DNA from: Bacteroidota bacterium
GTDB lineage: Bacteria; Bacteroidota; Bacteroidia; UBA7662; JAIXUI01
NCBI GenBank assembly: GCA_027484125.1
Contig: JAIXUI010000072.1
Location: 1 to 37,602, forward strand
Length of the DNA stretch: 37,602 bases
Direction: 5' to 3'
A model generated the notes under the pieces. That model ran no database searches. It saw only the letters and a program-made list of their open reading frames with translations, and had not been told where the DNA came from. Numbering within the stretch: the stretch's first letter is position 1; every line of letters begins with the position of its first letter. Of the stretch, positions 3,548 through 12,726 are shown in pieces. Made by a program: the position numbers and the translations under genes.

Positions 3548-3820
3548 CCACGAAAGCCACGAAGGGCACGAAAGGTTTTTTGTGTTTATGAGGGGCCCGG
3601 GGGTTCTTTTTATATCCACGAAAGGCACGAAGGGCACGAAAGGTTTTTTGTGTTTATGTGGGGCCCGGGGGTTCTTTTTATGTCCACGAAAGGCACGAAG
3701 GGCACGAAAGGTCTTTTAGTCTATATAAGGCACTAAGGGCAGGAGTTTTCTTTTTTGGCTATGTAATGCATGGAAGTGATTTAACTCTCATTTTTTCGTG
3801 TTTTTCGTGCCTTTCGTGGA
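3548..3820. repeat. 68-bp tandem repeat of CACGAAGG type with inverted end
   Basis: Two nearly identical 68-bp units (3548-3615, 3616-3683) are followed by a third, partial unit from 3684 that degenerates after about 3712. Each unit has a head of short CACGAARG-type words, then a T-rich stretch and a GC block GGGGCCCGGGGG. An inverted copy of the head (TTTTTCGTGCCTTTCGTGGA, ending at 3820) closes the element, so the transcript could fold back on itself. Short ORFs crossing it are repeat-encoded and not credible proteins. From memory, CACGAAGG-word repeats are widespread in environmental bacterial genomes; their function is unknown. Together with 3394-3547, where I see nothing, this fills the gap between the LruC gene and the hip remnants. 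Confidence 0.8.
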
Positions 3821-3866: not shown

Positions 3867-4007
3867 TTGAAGGCCGCCTTTGTAAAGGCAAGAAGGAGGC
3901 AATTGGGTTACACCCAGGAAGTATTTGCGGAGAAGGCTGGGGTTGCTCTTACCGTTATCAGAAAGATTGAGCAAGGCAAAGAAAACCATGAGACAGGGAA
4001 TCGTTAA
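3867..4007 (+). pseudogene. hipB-type XRE antitoxin remnant
   Basis: A 46-codon open stretch encodes a clear helix-turn-helix of the HipB/XRE kind: RRRQLGYTQEVFAEKAGV, then TVIRKIEQGKEN. The frame is open back to 3834 but offers no ATG, only a TTG at 3867, and the CACGAAGG repeat lies directly upstream, so the 5' end is probably lost. After KEN the frame runs out in HETGNR-stop, where HipB proteins normally continue. The ATG of the next gene (hipA-N) lies inside this end at 3988, suggesting a deletion fused hipB to the hipA-N start. An intact antitoxin would bind the operator and the HipA kinase; this copy probably does neither. Confidence 0.7.
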
Positions 4008-4312
4008 GTATAACAACATTCAAGCGGGTCTCCTTACAGAAGACGATCATGGAGAATATCGGTTTGTTTACGACGAGGCTTATGTAGCAAACTATCCTAA
4101 CCAATTCATCACCTTTACCATGCCGGTAAGCCCAAGGCCCTACCGAAGCAATCGGCTTTTTCCGTTTTTTGATGGGCTTATTCCGGAAGGATGGTTATTG
4201 AATATTGCCGCTGAAAGCTGGAAAATTAACAAGAATCACCGCAAGGGCCTGTTGCCAAAATACCATTGGTGCCGAAAGTGTACATCCAGTAAAGCCCGAA
4301 TCTTTTGCATAA
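3988..4312 (+). pseudogene. HipA N-terminal subunit, frameshifted
   Basis: In Bacteroidota, HipA is usually made as two proteins, a ~110-aa N-terminal domain protein and a kinase. From ATG 3988 the product begins MRQGIVKYNNIQAGLLTEDD and contains the family motif FFDGLIPEGWLL, so this is the N-terminal subunit. Near 4249 the frame breaks: after HRKGL the homology continues in another frame as CCQNTIGAESV, then VKPESFA and a stop at 4310-4312. A few bases appear to be missing between GGC (4246-4248) and TGT (4250-4252). The intact form would overlap the kinase start at 4305 by 8 bases. In its own frame the broken product would run on to 4374. Confidence 0.75.
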
Positions 4313-5078
4313 ATGTCTTTACTGTTATGAAGGGCTGGAAGAATCACAAGTTGACTATCACCCTCAATGTGTAAAAGCCTTTTGGGGGACTAAGCATCCA
4401 CCTGCTTTTCCTTATCAGCTGGAAGAAATGGAAAAGTTGGCCAAAAAAACCGCACAACATTCCATAACTATTCCGGGTGTGCAACCCAAATTGTCATTAG
4501 GATGGATAAAAACAGCATGGGATAACGGCCATCAAAATCGGTTGACCAATATTGATGCGCTGGAAGGGCGATACATGCTAAAACCACAAAATGCTAAATA
4601 TCCGCAGATGCCCGAGAATGAGCATCTTTCTATGAAACTGGCCGCATTGTTTGGGATAAGCATTGTGCCGGTAAGCATGATTCGTTGGTTATCCGGTGAA
4701 TTATGCTTCATCACCAAACGCATTGACCGCAACACCGACGGATCTAAAAATCACAAGATTGATTTTTTACAAATCTTAGAGTTATCTGATAAATACTTAG
4801 GCACTATGGAAACACTAGGCCAAACCATTGGTGATTTATCAGTAAATACTTTGCTTGATAAGTTGCGTTTTTTTAAATTGTCGGTCTTTAATTACATCAT
4901 TGGAAACAACGATATGCACTTGAAAAATTACTCCATGATTTTGATTGAAATGGGGTGGGTGCTTTCGCCTTTTTATGATTTATTAAATGTAAAACTGATC
5001 TCACCTAAGGATAAAGACGATTCCGCTTTGATGCTTGGAGGTAAAAAATCGAACTTCAATATTTATAGTGCTACATGA
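4305..5078 (+). pseudogene. HipA kinase subunit, C-terminally truncated
   Basis: This 257-aa product starts at a TTG overlapping the hipA-N stop. It opens with the Cys-rich head CLYCYEG...YHPQC found in split HipA kinases. The ATP-binding loop GVQPKLSLG is at residues 58-66, the catalytic loop NNDMHLKN at 201-208 (Asp203 the expected base, Asn208 metal ligand), and FYDLLN at 223-228 (Asp225 metal ligand). HipA is a Ser/Thr kinase that inactivates glutamyl-tRNA synthetase in E. coli; targets of the Bacteroidota branch may differ. The protein stops at YSAT, about 50 residues short of the usual ~310, so the C-terminal helical part is missing. All active-site motifs remain, but with the partners broken I treat it as a decaying gene. 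The following 256 bases to the next gene hold no recognisable HipA tail. Confidence 0.7.
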
Positions 5079-6392: not shown

Positions 6393-6709
6393 CTAAAAAA
6401 GAAGGATATGCACTTTTGTAAAAAAACGAAGTAACCTTCCCAAACTATCGTTTCTCAGCTGTATTTTTTTTCGTGAGTTTACACTGATCTATCCCCTCGA
6501 ACAGCCTGTTACAAATCTTCGGAAAAACTGTTTCAATGAAAGTCTTATATCGTAGTGTATATCCCTATTAAATCGAGTAGGAAGGTGGGGATTACTCCCC
6601 TATTGTAGTGGCTATTTTTCTCCTACATCAGTTTCTCTTCATTGGCATTCGCGCATACCTCCTACAGCGTGTGAACTCAGCCCTCTCAGGGTAAGTGTCT
6701 GCTTGCTAT
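6393..6709. other. Intergenic region, no gene recognised
   Basis: There are about 317 bases between the two-helix protein gene and the left xre fragment. I see no convincing ORF, RNA gene or terminator. The sequence stops resembling its right-hand counterpart exactly at 6717/6718, where the duplicated segment begins. Confidence 0.6.
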
Positions 6710-6778
6710 TCATGCGCGGTTGGCCATGTCTTGCTGACTCAAGCCTATTTTATTGCGCATGGTTTTCAGAATGTCCAT
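6710..6778 (-). pseudogene. xre 5' fragment (22 codons), left copy
   Basis: Reading leftward from ATG at 6778, the product is MDILKTMRNKIGLSQQDMAN followed by RA and a stop. The first 20 residues are identical to the start of the intact regulator at 11926-12441, after which unrelated sequence begins. It keeps the same upstream promoter (CAAAACTA on the plus strand, 6804-6811, i.e. TAGTTTTG on the minus strand) and palindromic array. It is a by-product of the direct duplication and cannot bind DNA by itself. Confidence 0.85.
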
Positions 6779-7059
6779 ATCCAATACTTAATGGAGCTTG
6801 TGGCAAAACTAAATTTTTCACCACATTTTGCCACAACCTTGTGGCAAAAGTTATTGTGGCAAAAAAAATTGCCACAGGTAAAAATGCCACAGCCTTGTGG
6901 CAAAAGTGTCTGTGGCAAAATAAATTGCTACAGGGAAAAATGCCACAGCTTTGTGGCAAAAGTTGTTGTGGCAAAAAAAATTGCCACTGGGCAAGTTGAT
7001 ACAGCCTTGTAGCAGAATGAAATTTTTCTTTGTAACAGTGTTGGAGATTACGCACCTCA
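6718..7059. repeat. Left copy of ~342-bp direct duplication
   Basis: This segment matches 12381-12723 in the same orientation, with a modest number of substitutions. Shared content, left to right, is the first 20 codons of xre (minus strand), its leader and promoter, the palindromic array, and a short tail (GAATGAARTTTTTCTTT onward). The two copies bracket about 5.3 kb that contains the restriction-methylation locus. Confidence 0.85.
6830..7013. repeat. 56-bp palindromic array, left copy
   Basis: Units start at 6830, 6886 and 6942, with a 16-base partial unit at 6998-7013; the period is exactly 56. Each unit contains the perfect or near-perfect palindrome GCCACA-N4-TGTGGC and a second inverted repeat TGTGGCAA...TTGCCACA around an A-rich centre. 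There are no unique spacers, so this is not a CRISPR array. ORFs reported across it on both strands are repeat artefacts. Confidence 0.9.
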
Positions 7060-7286: not shown

Positions 7287-7801
7287 TTATGCTTCTGCAA
7301 GTTCCTCCAGTGTGGGCAACTCTGTATATCGGTATTCGCTCACGCCAATGGGTTTGTTTACATCTTTCAAAGCAAATTCTACTTCAAATTTATCTATGCA
7401 ACTTGTTTCGCAACTACAAATGGCTGTTCATTCAATTGCGAAGCAACTTGTTTCGCAATTACAAATGGCTGTTGCTTCAATTGCGAAGCAACTTGTTTCG
7501 CAATTGAAGCAAAAGTAGCGGAATAGCATAAACTCCATTGTCTGATCAATTCCAAATTGCGCTTTGAAAACCCAGATACTGCCTGGAAATCAGCCATTAA
7601 ATCCTTGCTTAATTGTCCTATGAAATTACTTCCCCAAGAGGTGTTTTCTTGTTTGTGTATAATTTGCATTCTCAGTCCAAAATAAAATGCTGTCAATTCC
7701 TTGTTGACTTGCAAGGCAGCTTTGCTTTGTGTATTGCTAAACTTTTCTTTTAGTTGAGAAAGCCCATAGCGGTACTACTCATCACGGATTAATTTGCTCA
7801 T
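7287..7801 (-). pseudogene. DUF1016 (YhcG-type PD-(D/E)XK) gene, dead
   Basis: From ATG 7801 the product reads MSKLIRDE, then an in-frame TAG at 7775-7777, then YRYGLSQLKEKFSNTQSKAA and QVNKELTAFYFGLRMQII. It continues with GFSKRNLELIRQWSL, which is a typical DUF1016 N-terminal domain. Three copies of a 15-residue repeat follow. A large deletion then removes the middle of the gene, and the sequence resumes in another frame as FEVEFALKDVNKPIGVSEYR and LPTLEELAEA-stop (7287-7289), the usual DUF1016 C-terminus. Intact relatives are nuclease-fold proteins often found beside restriction systems. The nonsense codon, the deletion and the frame change leave no functional product. Confidence 0.8.
7398..7511. 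repeat. 45-bp in-frame repeat inside DUF1016 remnant
   Basis: Units start at 7398, 7443 and 7488 (partial), with a period of 45 bases. On the minus strand each unit encodes a 15-residue block such as IAKQVASQLKQQPFV. The block probably expanded from a single IAKQ-type segment of the original protein. Confidence 0.8.
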
Positions 7802-7806
7802 ATCAT

Positions 7807-7895
7807 CTATTTTTTCATCACAAAAATGTTGATGCTAACGCCTTGCATGATGTCAAATACGCTTGGAAGCACTTGAATTTCATCACCATTCAGTT
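7807..7895 (-). pseudogene. Internal fragment of a third, diverged type ISP-like gene
   Basis: In a frame different from the end of the full enzyme, the minus strand reads LNGDEIQVLPSVFDIMQGVS, then INIFVMKK and a stop at 7807-7809. The core VFDIMQGVSINIFV equals VFDIQQGVSINIFV of the full enzyme except for one residue, but the DNA is clearly diverged, so it derives from another homologue. It overlaps the last codons of the full gene and the 80-base gap before the DUF1016 remnant. Confidence 0.65.
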
Positions 7896-10800
7896 TCAAC
7901 TCGGTCTATCTCTTTCATCAGTCTATCCGTTTCTGTCAAGGCCACGATGATTTTCTGATAGTGGAAAATGTCTTCGAATTCAAGTTTGCGGTCTTTACGG
8001 TCTTTCAGCCATTTTTGGGCGGGTTGGTAGCCGCCAATGTAAAACTCCCAAGCGGTTTGCGGCACATTGTCAAAATACTGGGTGTCGTTGATATACACTT
8101 TCCCGTTTTCGTATTTCGTTTTTACTACTCCATTATCTCCGTCAATGGGATATTGGGTGATGTATTTCTCCACTATAGGACTATCCAATAAATGGATTTC
8201 TCTGATTTCTCCGCCTAATTTTACGAGTTGCCAAAATGTATTGGCGTCTTTTGGATAGGGTACTCTAGGAAAATCTATTTTTAGAAACTCCTTGTATTTC
8301 TCCCGATAAGTGGGCGAATGTAAGACGGCATAGATGTAATCTAACAGGTCTATGGGGGCTATTTCGACAGGCTCAATGGCCGGTTTGGATGTTGAAGTTA
8401 GTTTCTCCGGTACAAATGTTAAACCCAATTTATCGGCTATTTGCTGGACGATTTCAAGGTTGAGGTTGGGCATTCTTTCAGTTGCTTGACCTATGGTTTG
8501 TTGGGCGGTGGTTTCGGGATAGATGTACAGGGGAAAAATAGATGAAATGCCTTTATAGCTGAAATGGTATCGATTGTCAATTATGTAGGAGCTTATTTGT
8601 ACATTACACCAATACTCGTCAGTAGATTGTCTTCCAACAATTAATCCGAAGTTTTTTCCTTTTAGGAAATGTTGCATGACTTTTTCTCTTGCCCTCTCAA
8701 TTAATTTAGTGTCAAAGTAAACAAACTTATCATCAAATGGGCGGTAGGATATTTTTTTTATTAAATTTTTATCTGCTTCTATTGAATAAAACTCTTCAAT
8801 GCTATTAACTAATGACTCTTTATTTTCGTTTATCAAAATCGCATCTTTTGATGTTACAATTCCCACATTGTTTAAGGTAAACAATTCACTTACAGAAATC
8901 CCTTTATCATATTCTCTTTGATCTTCAAAGTCTTTGATTGAAAAAAAATAGTTTGGTGCAATGTTTGGCAACTCTTTGTAAGGAATAGTTTTGAGCGAGT
9001 TTTCATTTAAAAAATCATACTTCATTTCTCTTTTTCCGAATAAATCGAAATGAAATACTTTTCCTAATTCGTTAACCTTCTTTTTTCTTGTTTTAACAAA
9101 AATGTTTATTGAAACACCTTGTTGAATATCAAATACATTTATGTCAACACTTCCGTCAGGTGCGGTTTCTTTCTTTTTGCTGTTACCGTGTAAATCAATT
9201 GTATAGATTTTATCATACGTTTTAAGCAAGTTCCAACGCATTCCTCTAAAAGTTGGGTTATCCAAATAACCGTGAGGATTTATAAACGCCAAAACACCAC
9301 TTCCATTCTTCTCAATAAAATGCTGACCGTAACGCAAAAACTTCACATAATCGTCATTGATCCATTTTGGATTTCTTTCTTTTAATTTTTCTTTTCCGCC
9401 CGGCTCTTTTTTATAATCTTCCATTAAACCCATAATCCACTCGCCCTTATTGGCACTTTCCCCACTATACGGCGGATTTCCAATTACACACATCACTGGT
9501 GTATCTCGTTTGATGTGATTGGCTTCATTGGCTTCGGTACTTAACCAGTTGGCAAATAAAGTTCCTGTATCGGGGTGGCTTTCTTCTAAGCTATTGGTGA
9601 GATAAACCCTAAATCGTTGGTTGGTGGTGGGTTTATATCCTGTTTCTTTTAGTAGTAAATCCAGTTTAAGGTGGGCCATGGCATAACTGGCCATGAGCAA
9701 TTCAAAGCCGTTTAAACGGGGCACCAAATGGCTTTCTACATAATTGCTCCAAATACCCTGTTGGCCTTCAAATTTTTTGTGAATGTGTTTGATGGTTTCA
9801 GCGAGAAAGGTTCCAGTTCCAGCTGCGGGGTCTAAAATTTGAACTTTGTGCACTTCTTGCTCAAGTATTTTGCCTTGCACGTTCACCTTAATCTTGGTTT
9901 TGCTGGTATCGGCTAAACCTTGAGGCAAATCAAATTCTGCTTTCAAAATATCGTCAACCGCCCGAACGATAAAATTGACAACGGGTTGCGGGGTGTACCA
10001 AACGCCTCTGGCTTTACGAAGTTTTGGGTCGTATTCACTTAGAAAGGTTTCATAAAAATGGATAATGGGGTCTTCCATTTTTGTTGACTTCCCGTAATTC
10101 TTCAATATTTCTTCTACGTTGCAATGGAGAAAAACATCTACCAGGCTATCTACTATCCATTTTATACGGTCGTCAATATCGGGTCCGGCAATGTACCCAA
10201 ACAGTTTTCGTAAAAAGGGATTGGATTTAGGAATTAGTTCTGCCGCTTCTTGTCTGCTAAACGTTGGCAAGGTAGGGTCGTGTAAACGCGCTGCAAACAT
10301 CCCGTAAGCAATGGTTTGGGCATAAACGTCTGCAAACCCTTTGGGAGTAATATCGTGAATCAAAATTTCTTTGAAAGCCTTCATTTGGTCTTTCAGCGTG
10401 CTGTCTTCGTGATTGGTTTCATCACTCGTCAACGATTTTTCAATCACTTCAGAAAGCAGACGTGCTTTGCCTGCCATCATTTCTGCCAATCTTTTTGAAC
10501 TCTTTATGGTCTGCCCAATGTGGGTGCAAAAGTCTTTGATGAAGTTTTCAAAACTTGAAAAATTCTCTGTCAGTGGTTTGATGCCTTTGTCGGTAATTTC
10601 ACCAATGGCGATTTTCATTACAAACTGCCCGTCACGATATAAATGAAAGTCGAGATAGTCTGTAAAAATGAGGTTGTTTAGCGAAGCTTTATAACGGTCA
10701 AACTGTTCTTTGTTTCCAGTTTTCTTTGCCCCTTCAAGGTCTTTGTCTCCGATGTCTTTCGCTTCAATAAATCCAACCGGAATATCTTTTTTAGTGAGAA

Positions 10801-10966
10801 TATAGTCTGGTGCTCCGCAGCTTTGTCTTTTGGGTTCGTTGGTGGCTCTAATGGTGGGCACTAAACTTTCCAATAGTTGTTGTAAGTCGCCCCGAAAAGT
10901 ATGTTCGGTTGCGTTACCAAGTTTATAGCGTTTACTGATGTTGTCGATATACTGGTCTAAAGTCAT
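7883..10966 (-). CDS. Type ISP-like restriction-modification enzyme (nuclease-methyltransferase fusion)
   Basis: This 1027-aa single-chain enzyme carries an N-terminal PD-(D/E)XK nuclease domain, with GAPDYIL at residues 51-57 and FIEAK at 66-70. A helical linker spans about 130-310. The N6-adenine methyltransferase has RGVWYTPQPVV at 320-330, the SAM-binding motif DPAAGTGTF at 379-387 and the catalytic NPPY at 497-500. The C-terminal ~500 residues correspond to the target-recognition and Type ISP C-terminal region (DINVFDIQQGVSINIF, ILDYIYAVLHSP). It should methylate adenine in a specific site and cleave unmodified DNA. Classical type ISP enzymes (LlaGI, LlaBIII, ~1570 aa) carry a RecA-like helicase between nuclease and methylase. 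Here the linker is too short and I see no Walker motif, so the architecture is closer to type IIG. Base composition is AT-richer than the flanks. Confidence 0.85.
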   Translation of the reverse strand: MTLDQYIDNISKRYKLGNATEHTFRGDLQQLLESLVPTIRATNEPKRQSCGAPDYILTKKDIPVGFIEAKDIGDKDLEGAKKTGNKEQFDRYKASLNNLIFTDYLDFHLYRDGQFVMKIAIGEITDKGIKPLTENFSSFENFIKDFCTHIGQTIKSSKRLAEMMAGKARLLSEVIEKSLTSDETNHEDSTLKDQMKAFKEILIHDITPKGFADVYAQTIAYGMFAARLHDPTLPTFSRQEAAELIPKSNPFLRKLFGYIAGPDIDDRIKWIVDSLVDVFLHCNVEEILKNYGKSTKMEDPIIHFYETFLSEYDPKLRKARGVWYTPQPVVNFIVRAVDDILKAEFDLPQGLADTSKTKIKVNVQGKILEQEVHKVQILDPAAGTGTFLAETIKHIHKKFEGQQGIWSNYVESHLVPRLNGFELLMASYAMAHLKLDLLLKETGYKPTTNQRFRVYLTNSLEESHPDTGTLFANWLSTEANEANHIKRDTPVMCVIGNPPYSGESANKGEWIMGLMEDYKKEPGGKEKLKERNPKWINDDYVKFLRYGQHFIEKNGSGVLAFINPHGYLDNPTFRGMRWNLLKTYDKIYTIDLHGNSKKKETAPDGSVDINVFDIQQGVSINIFVKTRKKKVNELGKVFHFDLFGKREMKYDFLNENSLKTIPYKELPNIAPNYFFSIKDFEDQREYDKGISVSELFTLNNVGIVTSKDAILINENKESLVNSIEEFYSIEADKNLIKKISYRPFDDKFVYFDTKLIERAREKVMQHFLKGKNFGLIVGRQSTDEYWCNVQISSYIIDNRYHFSYKGISSIFPLYIYPETTAQQTIGQATERMPNLNLEIVQQIADKLGLTFVPEKLTSTSKPAIEPVEIAPIDLLDYIYAVLHSPTYREKYKEFLKIDFPRVPYPKDANTFWQLVKLGGEIREIHLLDSPIVEKYITQYPIDGDNGVVKTKYENGKVYINDTQYFDNVPQTAWEFYIGGYQPAQKWLKDRKDRKLEFEDIFHYQKIIVALTETDRLMKEIDRVETEW

Positions 10967-11388: not shown

Positions 11389-11802
11389 TTAAGCGAGTGC
11401 AGCTTTACGGGCTTCCAAGCCGGTAATAAAGGTATTCAATGCGGCTATTTGTGCCTCTGCAACTTCTTTGCGCATTTCCATAAGCAGCAGTCCGCTGTTG
11501 CCGGAGTTGGTCAGTTTTTCTTCCAGATTATCTTTACGATCGTTTAATCGGCGAATGCGTCCTGCCATCTTGGTTTTTTCATCGCCTTCTGGCAGGGCAT
11601 TCAGGGCAGCAGTGAACGCCGTGATTTGAATGTTCACCGAAGTGAGGTCGGCTTGTGCTTGGGCAACTGACTTGGCAGTGGACGCCGAATCGAGTTCAAA
11701 GCCGGAGACTTCATGGGTAAGTTCCGCTTTTTCATGGTTAGCACGGTCAAGGAGCAGGTCACATTCCGCAATAGTTGCGAGTTTGTCGTAAGAGTACGCC
11801 AT
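11389..11802 (-). CDS. Small coiled-coil protein, function unknown
   Basis: This 137-aa acidic protein begins MAYSYDKLATIAECDLLLDR and is predicted almost entirely helical. Heptad-like stretches run through residues 10-60 and 75-137, rich in Ala, Leu, Glu and Lys. It has no signal peptide or membrane segment, so it is cytoplasmic. A break around ALPEGDEKTKM suggests a helical hairpin. I do not recognise a characterised family. It lies 123 bases downstream of the xre gene on the same strand and ends at a strong terminator, so the two probably share a transcript unless the gap contains its own promoter. A structural or partner protein of the regulator is possible but is inference. Confidence 0.75.
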   Translation of the reverse strand: MAYSYDKLATIAECDLLLDRANHEKAELTHEVSGFELDSASTAKSVAQAQADLTSVNIQITAFTAALNALPEGDEKTKMAGRIRRLNDRKDNLEEKLTNSGNSGLLLMEMRKEVAEAQIAALNTFITGLEARKAALA

Positions 11803-11925: not shown

Positions 11926-12441
11926 TTATTCCCGCAGCCTATCCGCATAAACTGCAACTGCATTTTTACACAGTTCTAATTGGGTTTCACTATGCAGCCA
12001 TCGGGTAATGAGTTGCTCTAAGTGCGCCTGTTGCTGGTATTGTGTAAGATGACTGATGAACTGCTGCCCTCTACTCGTAAATTCAAGCTCGGTTAAACCG
12101 TTGATTTGCTCCAGGAAGTAAAGAAGGTGCTGATGCTGTTTTACTTCTTCAAAGCAGGTTTTCGCGGCCTTTTCGGCTTTGAATAAATCTTGTTGGGCTT
12201 TTTTTAGTAGTTGCTCGGTTTCTAAGCGCAGCCTATCGGGAACTTGGTTAGGGATTGTTGGAGGGGGTAACTCTTGCATTAAAATCGGCAATAAAGCGGC
12301 AAACCTTAACGCAGCCTCTGCAGGAAGTGTCCTTTTGCAGGTCTCCACCATGGAATATAGCTGGCGAGTAACCCCCAACAGGTTGGCCATGTCTTGCTGA
12401 CTCAAGCCTATTTTATTGCGCATGGTTTTCAGGATGTCCAT
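11926..12441 (-). CDS. XRE-family transcriptional regulator
   Basis: This 171-aa protein has an N-terminal helix-turn-helix of the XRE/Cro type (residues 3-57: MRNKIGLSQQDMANLLGVTR then SMVETCKRTLP). A long helical C-terminal region (about 75-171) follows, rich in Gln, Glu and Leu, and probably dimerises. ATG 12441 is chosen over TTG 12447 because the left duplicate shares the same ATG and a -7 box TAAATTTG lies 26 bases upstream. The promoter's -33 position overlaps the first GCCACA/TGTGGC palindrome, so the protein may bind the array and control itself. It could also act as a controller protein for the nearby restriction gene, but a terminator lies between them, so that is speculative. Confidence 0.85.
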   Translation of the reverse strand: MDILKTMRNKIGLSQQDMANLLGVTRQLYSMVETCKRTLPAEAALRFAALLPILMQELPPPTIPNQVPDRLRLETEQLLKKAQQDLFKAEKAAKTCFEEVKQHQHLLYFLEQINGLTELEFTSRGQQFISHLTQYQQQAHLEQLITRWLHSETQLELCKNAVAVYADRLRE

Positions 12442-12466
12442 ATCCAATACTTATCGGAGCTTGTGG

Positions 12467-12499
12467 CAAATTTAAATTTTTCACCACATTTTGCCACAA
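12467..12499 (-). promoter_or_regulatory. Promoter of xre, overlapping palindromic array
   Basis: On the minus strand TAAATTTG (12474-12467) fits the -7 consensus TAnnTTTG. A TTG at 12499-12497 is a candidate -33, with a 22-base spacer, slightly long. The -33 lies inside the first array palindrome (12493-12508), so a protein on the palindrome would be expected to block RNA polymerase. Confidence 0.55.
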
Positions 12500-12676
12500 C
12501 CTTGTAGCAAAAGTTATTGTGGCAAAAAAAATTGCCACAAGGTAAAATGCCACAGCCTTGTGGCAAATGTTGCTGTGGCAAAAAAAATTGCCACAGGGTA
12601 AAATGCCACAGCCTTGTGGCAAAAGTGTCTGTAGCAAAAAAAATTGCTACAAGGAAAAATGCCACAGCCTTGTGGC
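12493..12676. repeat. 56-bp palindromic array, right copy
   Basis: Units start at 12493, 12549 and 12605, with a terminal 16-base partial unit at 12661-12676; the period is exactly 56. The full palindrome is GCCACAGCCTTGTGGC. The alternating inverted repeat joins TGTGGCAA and TTGCCACA, or the variant TGTAGCAA with TTGCTACA. In the last full unit both arms changed together (TGTAGC/GCTACA), so base pairing is kept. Confidence 0.9.
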
Positions 12677-12726
12677 TGAATGAAGTTTTTCTTTAATAAC
12701 TGAGTTAGAGATTCCGCACTTCAAAC

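What the first reader, a model, noticed from the sequence alone, without database searches (positions are those of the whole stretch)
12461..12680. 56-bp-period GCCACA/TGTGGC palindrome array overlapping the xre promoter
Three exact 56-bp steps plus a terminal half-unit are present in both copies. Each unit carries two alternating inverted repeats, and changes in one arm are matched in the other (TGTAGC with GCTACA), which implies selection on the paired structure or on a dimer-binding site. The -33 of the xre promoter lies inside the first palindrome. The spacing is 5.3 helical turns per unit. It could be a cooperative operator for the adjacent regulator, or a structured 5' leader or hairpin array. 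I know of no described element like it.
Basis: partly seen in the sequence, partly recalled or inferred. Interest (0 to 1): 0.68.

Follow-up and report, generated by a model that had tools for sequence, protein, structure and literature searches.

The report
Private operator array beside DNA-binding regulator
A block of repeated mirror-image DNA in front of a small regulator gene is most likely that regulator's own binding array, and dozens of related genes in Bacteroidota, mainly Hymenobacter, each carry a differently spelled array that changes together with the regulator's DNA-reading helix, often beside an unknown coiled-coil partner gene.

Summary
The 56-bp array is real. Window 12462-12676 holds 15 half-sites (TGTGGC/GCCACA) spaced 31,10,15,16,15,10..., and a duplicate at 6799-7013 repeats the spacing exactly. 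Best reading: a cooperative operator array for the adjacent Xre-type regulator. The gene belongs to an undescribed family (HTH_3 head, helical tail) in Bacteroidia, up to 18 copies per genome in Hymenobacter. In 52 of 76 members a 7-mer recurs at least four times within 300 nt upstream (3 of 23 generic HTH_3 controls), and the word differs between members. Operator similarity follows the recognition helix (Mantel rho 0.23, p 0.0002), not helix 1, helix 2 or the C-terminus. Spacing is kept although sequence is not. 41 of 76 have an uncharacterised ~137-aa coiled-coil partner, 40 of them directly downstream; the window's is 11389-11802(-). Caveats: gene-free arrays exist. Of five strict GCCACA arrays in 395 genomes only two adjoin an intact xre. 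One gene-free site elsewhere has two adjacent arrays in which all six half-sites differ in concert (TGTGGC/TGTGTC). Binding, repression and the partner's role are inferred, not tested. The closest functional parallel is KfrA/KfrC of plasmid RA3; membership of that family is not supported.

The parts
12462..12676 (.). Operator array: 15 half-sites TGTGGC/GCCACA (three carry the variants TGTAGC/GCTACA); unit of 56 bp = inward pair (10) + tandem (15) + outward pair (16) + tandem (15), plus an xre-proximal half-site 31 bp away
12467..12474 (-). Inferred -7 box TAAATTTG of the xre promoter, overlapping the xre-proximal half-site; -33 TTG at 12497-12499 inside the next half-site; in the duplicate copy only the two free positions differ (TAGTTTTG)
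   Evidence: sequence, copy alignment; Bacteroidota promoter consensus from own knowledge; not tested
11926..12441 (-). xre gene, 171 aa from ATG (TTG start at 12447 possible): HTH_3 head with recognition helix VTRQLYSM, helical tail
   Evidence: Pfam HTH_3 3.4e-7; AlphaFold2 mean pLDDT 72, head above 85, long helix 69-102; Foldseek HipB, C.BclI, CylR2
11389..11802 (-). Partner gene, 137 aa, three-helix antiparallel coiled coil, conserved directly downstream of many family xre genes
   Evidence: AlphaFold2 pLDDT 93; no convincing family hit in Pfam, PHROGs, NCBIfam or PADLOC
6799..7013 (.). Duplicate array with identical half-site spacing, decaying at the distal end
6704..6784 (-). Truncated start of a duplicated xre (first 27 codons, 78% identical, one stop)

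Best explanation
The array is a cluster of binding sites for the product of the adjacent xre gene. An Xre dimer is expected to read each GCCACA-N4-TGTGGC palindrome (half-site centres 10 bp apart, as in 434-type operators). The tandem half-sites 15 bp away and the long helical tail would allow neighbouring dimers to bind cooperatively. Because the xre-proximal half-sites cover the -33 and -7 boxes, occupancy should switch off the xre promoter (autorepression). The gene is one member of a radiated Bacteroidota family in which most regulators keep their own operator word, so that paralogues in one cell do not cross-talk. It often sits upstream of a conserved coiled-coil partner with which it may form the active complex. 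Shown by computation: the array, the family, the private words, co-variation with the recognition helix, conserved geometry, the partner. Inferred: binding, cooperativity, autorepression, contact with the partner.
For: 52 of 76 family genes against 3 of 23 generic HTH_3 genes have a 7-mer at least four times in the 300 nt upstream; 50 of the 76 are never matched in 60 dinucleotide shuffles. With the looser test (strong inverted repeat or repeated 7-mer) 66 of 76 against 7 of 23. Operator similarity correlates with recognition-helix similarity (exposed residues rho 0.23, p 0.0002, n=55) and not with helix 1, helix 2 or the C-terminus; it survives removal of proteins over 50% identical (p 0.005) and 40% (p 0.03, n=24, where helix 2 also reaches p 0.04). 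Met at recognition-helix position 33 goes with TGTG operators: 10 of 12 against 3 of 44, counted by eye, Fisher 5e-7. Geometry recurs across different sequences: direct period 40-43 bp, inward 11-13, tandem 14-15; 31,10,15,16,15 identical in the window and in another genome. Exact window palindromes occur in their own genome only in the two arrays; a second member's palindrome in G203 occurs only at its own locus.
Against: No binding data. Gene-free arrays exist: window copy 1 (xre truncated), G068:C4 (double array in a convergent gap) and G136:C23, a genome with no family hit, so the array is not only a promoter element. The Bacteroidota -7 motif is visible in only 6 of 52 members. Ten members show no strong array by my tests. 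Palindromes upstream of XRE genes are common in general, so part of the signal is generic.
Confidence: 0.8

Rival explanations
1. Array-binding complex with a role beyond its own promoter, working like plasmid KfrA/KfrC: Xre plus the coiled-coil partner assembles on clustered sites (gene-linked and gene-free) to bridge, position or stabilise DNA; autoregulation is secondary.
For: HTH plus helical tail and a helical partner gene; gene-free arrays, one in a convergent gap where it is not an obvious promoter element, with six of six half-sites switched together (16 of 57 spacer bases differ, no other half-site change). KfrA of RA3 is an autorepressor on five 9-bp repeats, binds the helical KfrC and acts in plasmid stability (PMC7783346); KfrA proteins form filaments on cognate sites (PMC7821693).
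Against: No ParA/ParB-like neighbour among the window genes scanned; no plasmid, phage or viral match; about half of the members lack the partner nearby; gene-free arrays known from only three places.
Confidence: 0.15
2. Toxin-antitoxin-like pair: Xre is the antitoxin and autorepressor, the partner the toxin, and private operators insulate the many copies.
For: Two-gene unit with an HTH of HipB/Y4mF type (best NCBIfam hits, below cut-off), autoregulatory architecture, patchy distribution, many copies.
Against: Partner is a plain coiled coil with no convincing toxin, TA or defence family hit; 35 of 76 xre genes have no partner nearby; the gap between the genes is 63-172 nt in most, wide for such operons.
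Confidence: 0.08
3. RNA hairpin array: structured leader or tandem intrinsic terminators.
For: Strong RNA fold (z -8.5), four terminator-like sites in the array on the minus strand, one gene-free array in a convergent gap.
Against: Hairpin models do not predict co-variation with the Xre recognition helix, private words, or conserved 10/15/16 spacing; the inferred start site lies downstream of the array.
Confidence: 0.05
4. Neutral tandem or inverted duplication (a minisatellite or REP-like repeat) with no role.
For: Duplication of the whole segment in the window; window copies show no significant excess of half-site conservation (p 0.29).
Against: Conserved geometry and helix co-variation across genera; the motif is not dispersed in the genome.
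Confidence: 0.03

Closest known systems
XRE (HTH_3) autoregulators and their palindromic operators (434 Cro type, R-M controller proteins, HigA/HipB, RES-Xre PMC12204516; large-scale motif survey PMC12565409)
   Same: HTH fold, palindromes in the gene's own upstream region, half-site centres one helical turn apart
   Different: Arrays of about four to fifteen half-sites with a conserved composite spacing; a helical tail of about 110 aa; a family in which operator word and recognition helix diversify together; an unknown coiled-coil partner
KfrA/KfrC of IncU/IncP plasmids (PMC7783346, PMC7821693)
   Same: HTH head, alpha-helical tail, autoregulation on a repeated operator overlapping the promoter, helical partner, low sequence conservation with cognate sites
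   Different: Different HTH type (HTH_3 here), shorter tail, inverted and tandem half-sites instead of direct repeats, no plasmid match, several copies per genome
Paralogous XRE radiation of Caulobacter (PMC10688885)
   Same: Radiation of XRE paralogues within a genus
   Different: Those paralogues control a common gene set; here members have private arrays, and a coiled-coil partner gene

Membership tests
XRE / HTH_3 regulators | HTH_3 domain above curated cut-off | tested here: met
   30.6 bits against cut-off 23
XRE / HTH_3 regulators | Fold match to solved XRE proteins | tested here: inconclusive
   HipB, C.BclI, CylR2 head the list with probability 1.0, but the best E-value is 0.004
XRE autorepressor with cognate operator | Operator in own upstream region whose sequence follows the recognition helix | tested here: met
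XRE autorepressor with cognate operator | Protein binds and represses its promoter | not testable with these tools
   needs EMSA and a reporter
KfrA family | KfrA N-terminal DNA-binding domain | tested here: not met
   Pfam scan at E 0.01 lists HTH_3 and related HTH models, no KfrA model
KfrA family | Plasmid-borne, next to partition genes | tested here: not met
   no plasmid hit for partner or xre relatives; no ParA/ParB among the window genes scanned
Type II toxin-antitoxin | Adjacent toxin gene of a known toxin family | tested here: not met
   partner has no convincing family hit
Type II toxin-antitoxin | Partner is toxic, Xre neutralises it | not testable with these tools
   needs expression tests
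R-M controller (C) protein | Linked to and controlling an R-M operon | tested here: not met
   a type ISP R-M gene lies nearby in the window (7883-10966), but R-M genes are not a consistent neighbour of other members (read by eye)
REP/BIME-RAYT | Dispersed REP copies and an HUH transposase | tested here: not met
   palindrome confined to two arrays in the genome; no transposase domain in xre or partner

The most novel reading that the evidence does not exclude
A new two-protein DNA-array system of Bacteroidota: a radiating family of Xre proteins with coiled-coil partners, each with a private address. It binds gene-linked and gene-free arrays of fixed geometry to bridge or position chromosomal DNA, with autoregulation as a by-product; addresses are switched by concerted change of all half-sites in an array.
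Probability: 0.15. Interest if true: 0.82.

Novelty: new variant of a known kind. Interest (0 to 1): 0.6.

Why it matters
It offers a natural set of more than 50 regulator and operator pairs of one fold, with clear recognition-helix differences and multi-site operators, in which a DNA-recognition code, its insulation between paralogues and its switching can be tested directly. It also defines an unknown conserved coiled-coil protein that often follows these regulators, and gene-free arrays that ask for a function beyond autoregulation.

Tried and rejected
Rfam over the window: only a tRNA. Search of the window xre alone in genome contigs: no close relative. Search in plasmids, phages and viral contigs for partner or xre: none. 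The array pattern in viral contigs gave 29 stretches; the few with five or more half-sites close together are other repeats with different spacing. Selection on pairing from the two window copies alone: not significant. Operator-like words in the gap between xre and partner: 11 found, about 10.7 expected, so the partner shows no operator of its own there. Bacteroidota -7 motif as a general feature: only 6 of 52. Literature searches found no description of this family; only open-licence full texts were searched.

Full report
Observation. TRF and repeat search give a 56-bp period at 12492-12676 and again at 6829-7014. Read as half-sites, both copies show the same offsets, 31,10,15,16,15,10,15,16,15,10,15,16,15,10. 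Copy 1 is a partial duplicate that keeps the array, the promoter-like region and only the first 27 codons of xre. In the 3.3-Mb genome exact copies of the two palindromes of the unit occur only in these two arrays.

The gene. The neighbouring gene encodes a 171-aa protein with an HTH_3 head and a helical tail. The seed profile was built from full-length relatives found by protein similarity. It finds few members in most Bacteroidia but many in one family of genomes: 18 in G203 and 13 in G441. A named search with the partner places this in Hymenobacter, with one Tenacibaculum.

Private operators. Of 76 family genes, 52 have a 7-mer at least four times (both orientations counted together) within 300 nt upstream, against 3 of 23 generic HTH_3 genes; for 50 of the 76 no shuffle of 60 reached it. 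The words differ: TGTGGCA, TTGTACC, TGTGACG, TTGTCTC, GTATACC, TGTTACC and so on. For a second member the palindrome was checked genome-wide and occurs only at its own locus.

Link to the protein. I compared operator matrices with protein segments. Similarity of operators follows similarity of the recognition helix (exposed residues rho 0.23, p 0.0002) and not helix 1, helix 2 or the C-terminal tail. It holds when proteins above 50% identity are removed (p 0.005); at 40% the sample is small (n=24, p 0.03) and helix 2 is also nominally significant. A Met at position 33 of the recognition helix goes with TGTG operators (10 of 12 against 3 of 44). This is the main evidence that the arrays are read by the adjacent protein.

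Geometry. Across members with different words the spacing recurs: direct period 40-43 bp, inward pairs 11-13, tandem half-sites 14-15. The window's 31,10,15,16,15 is found unchanged in another genome. This suits a protein lattice on DNA and not a drifting repeat.

Partner. 41 of 76 family genes have a conserved ~137-aa gene beside them, 40 directly downstream and one divergent; none of the 23 controls has it. In the reverse direction most partner loci have a family xre just upstream; exceptions were seen in G022 and G208 (no xre next to it) and in G317 and Tenacibaculum, where the order is reversed. AlphaFold2 gives a confident three-helix coiled coil (pLDDT 93); no family library knows it and fold matches are generic coiled coils.

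Gene-free arrays. A sequence-only scan of 395 Bacteroidia genomes for the half-site triple found five array sites: two in the window, one upstream of the family xre in G068, and two with no xre within about 10 kb (G068:C4 and G136:C23). At G068:C4 two arrays stand side by side in a convergent gap with identical geometry. One reads TGTGGC, the other TGTGTC, and all six half-sites differ at the same position and nowhere else, while 16 of 57 spacer bases differ. Such a concerted switch is hard to explain without selection by a binding protein, even where no xre is present. Whether these are remnants, trans targets or something else is open.

Mechanism and limits. I take the array to be a cooperative operator through which the Xre represses its own promoter. 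The -7 and -33 boxes under the proximal half-sites fit, but they are read from consensus, and the -7 motif is not general in the family. Binding, repression and partner contact are inferred. KfrA/KfrC is the nearest working parallel (PMC7783346, PMC7821693), though the protein carries an HTH_3 domain and was not shown to belong to that family.

Noticed in passing
7394-7714 (repeats 7398-7506): Remnant of a DUF1016 (YhcG-type) gene with a 45-bp tandem repeat that itself contains palindromes (TTGCGAAGCAACTTGTTTCGCAA) and encodes repeats around KQVASQL.
   Followed up: no
3925-5078: HipA N-terminal and C-terminal domains lie in two overlapping frames, as if the gene were split or frameshifted.
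   Followed up: no
3548-3717: 68-bp tandem repeat, 2.5 copies, 96% matches.
   Followed up: no
L189:9955-10210 (G068:C4): Two adjacent gene-free arrays with identical geometry, TGTGGC and TGTGTC, in a convergent intergenic gap.
   Followed up: partly
L188:9929-10034 (G136:C23): Gene-free GCCACA array with spacing 14,16,14,10,14,16,14 in a genome with no family xre found.
   Followed up: partly
L121, L116, L110, L113, L143 upstream regions: In several Hymenobacter members not only the half-sites but the whole unit with its spacer is inverted, giving long near-perfect inverted repeats.
   Followed up: no
L014 (G000:C140): The own-genome paralogue has a different array (57-bp period, TGACAC/TGTGTC) and its own partner gene.
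   Followed up: partly
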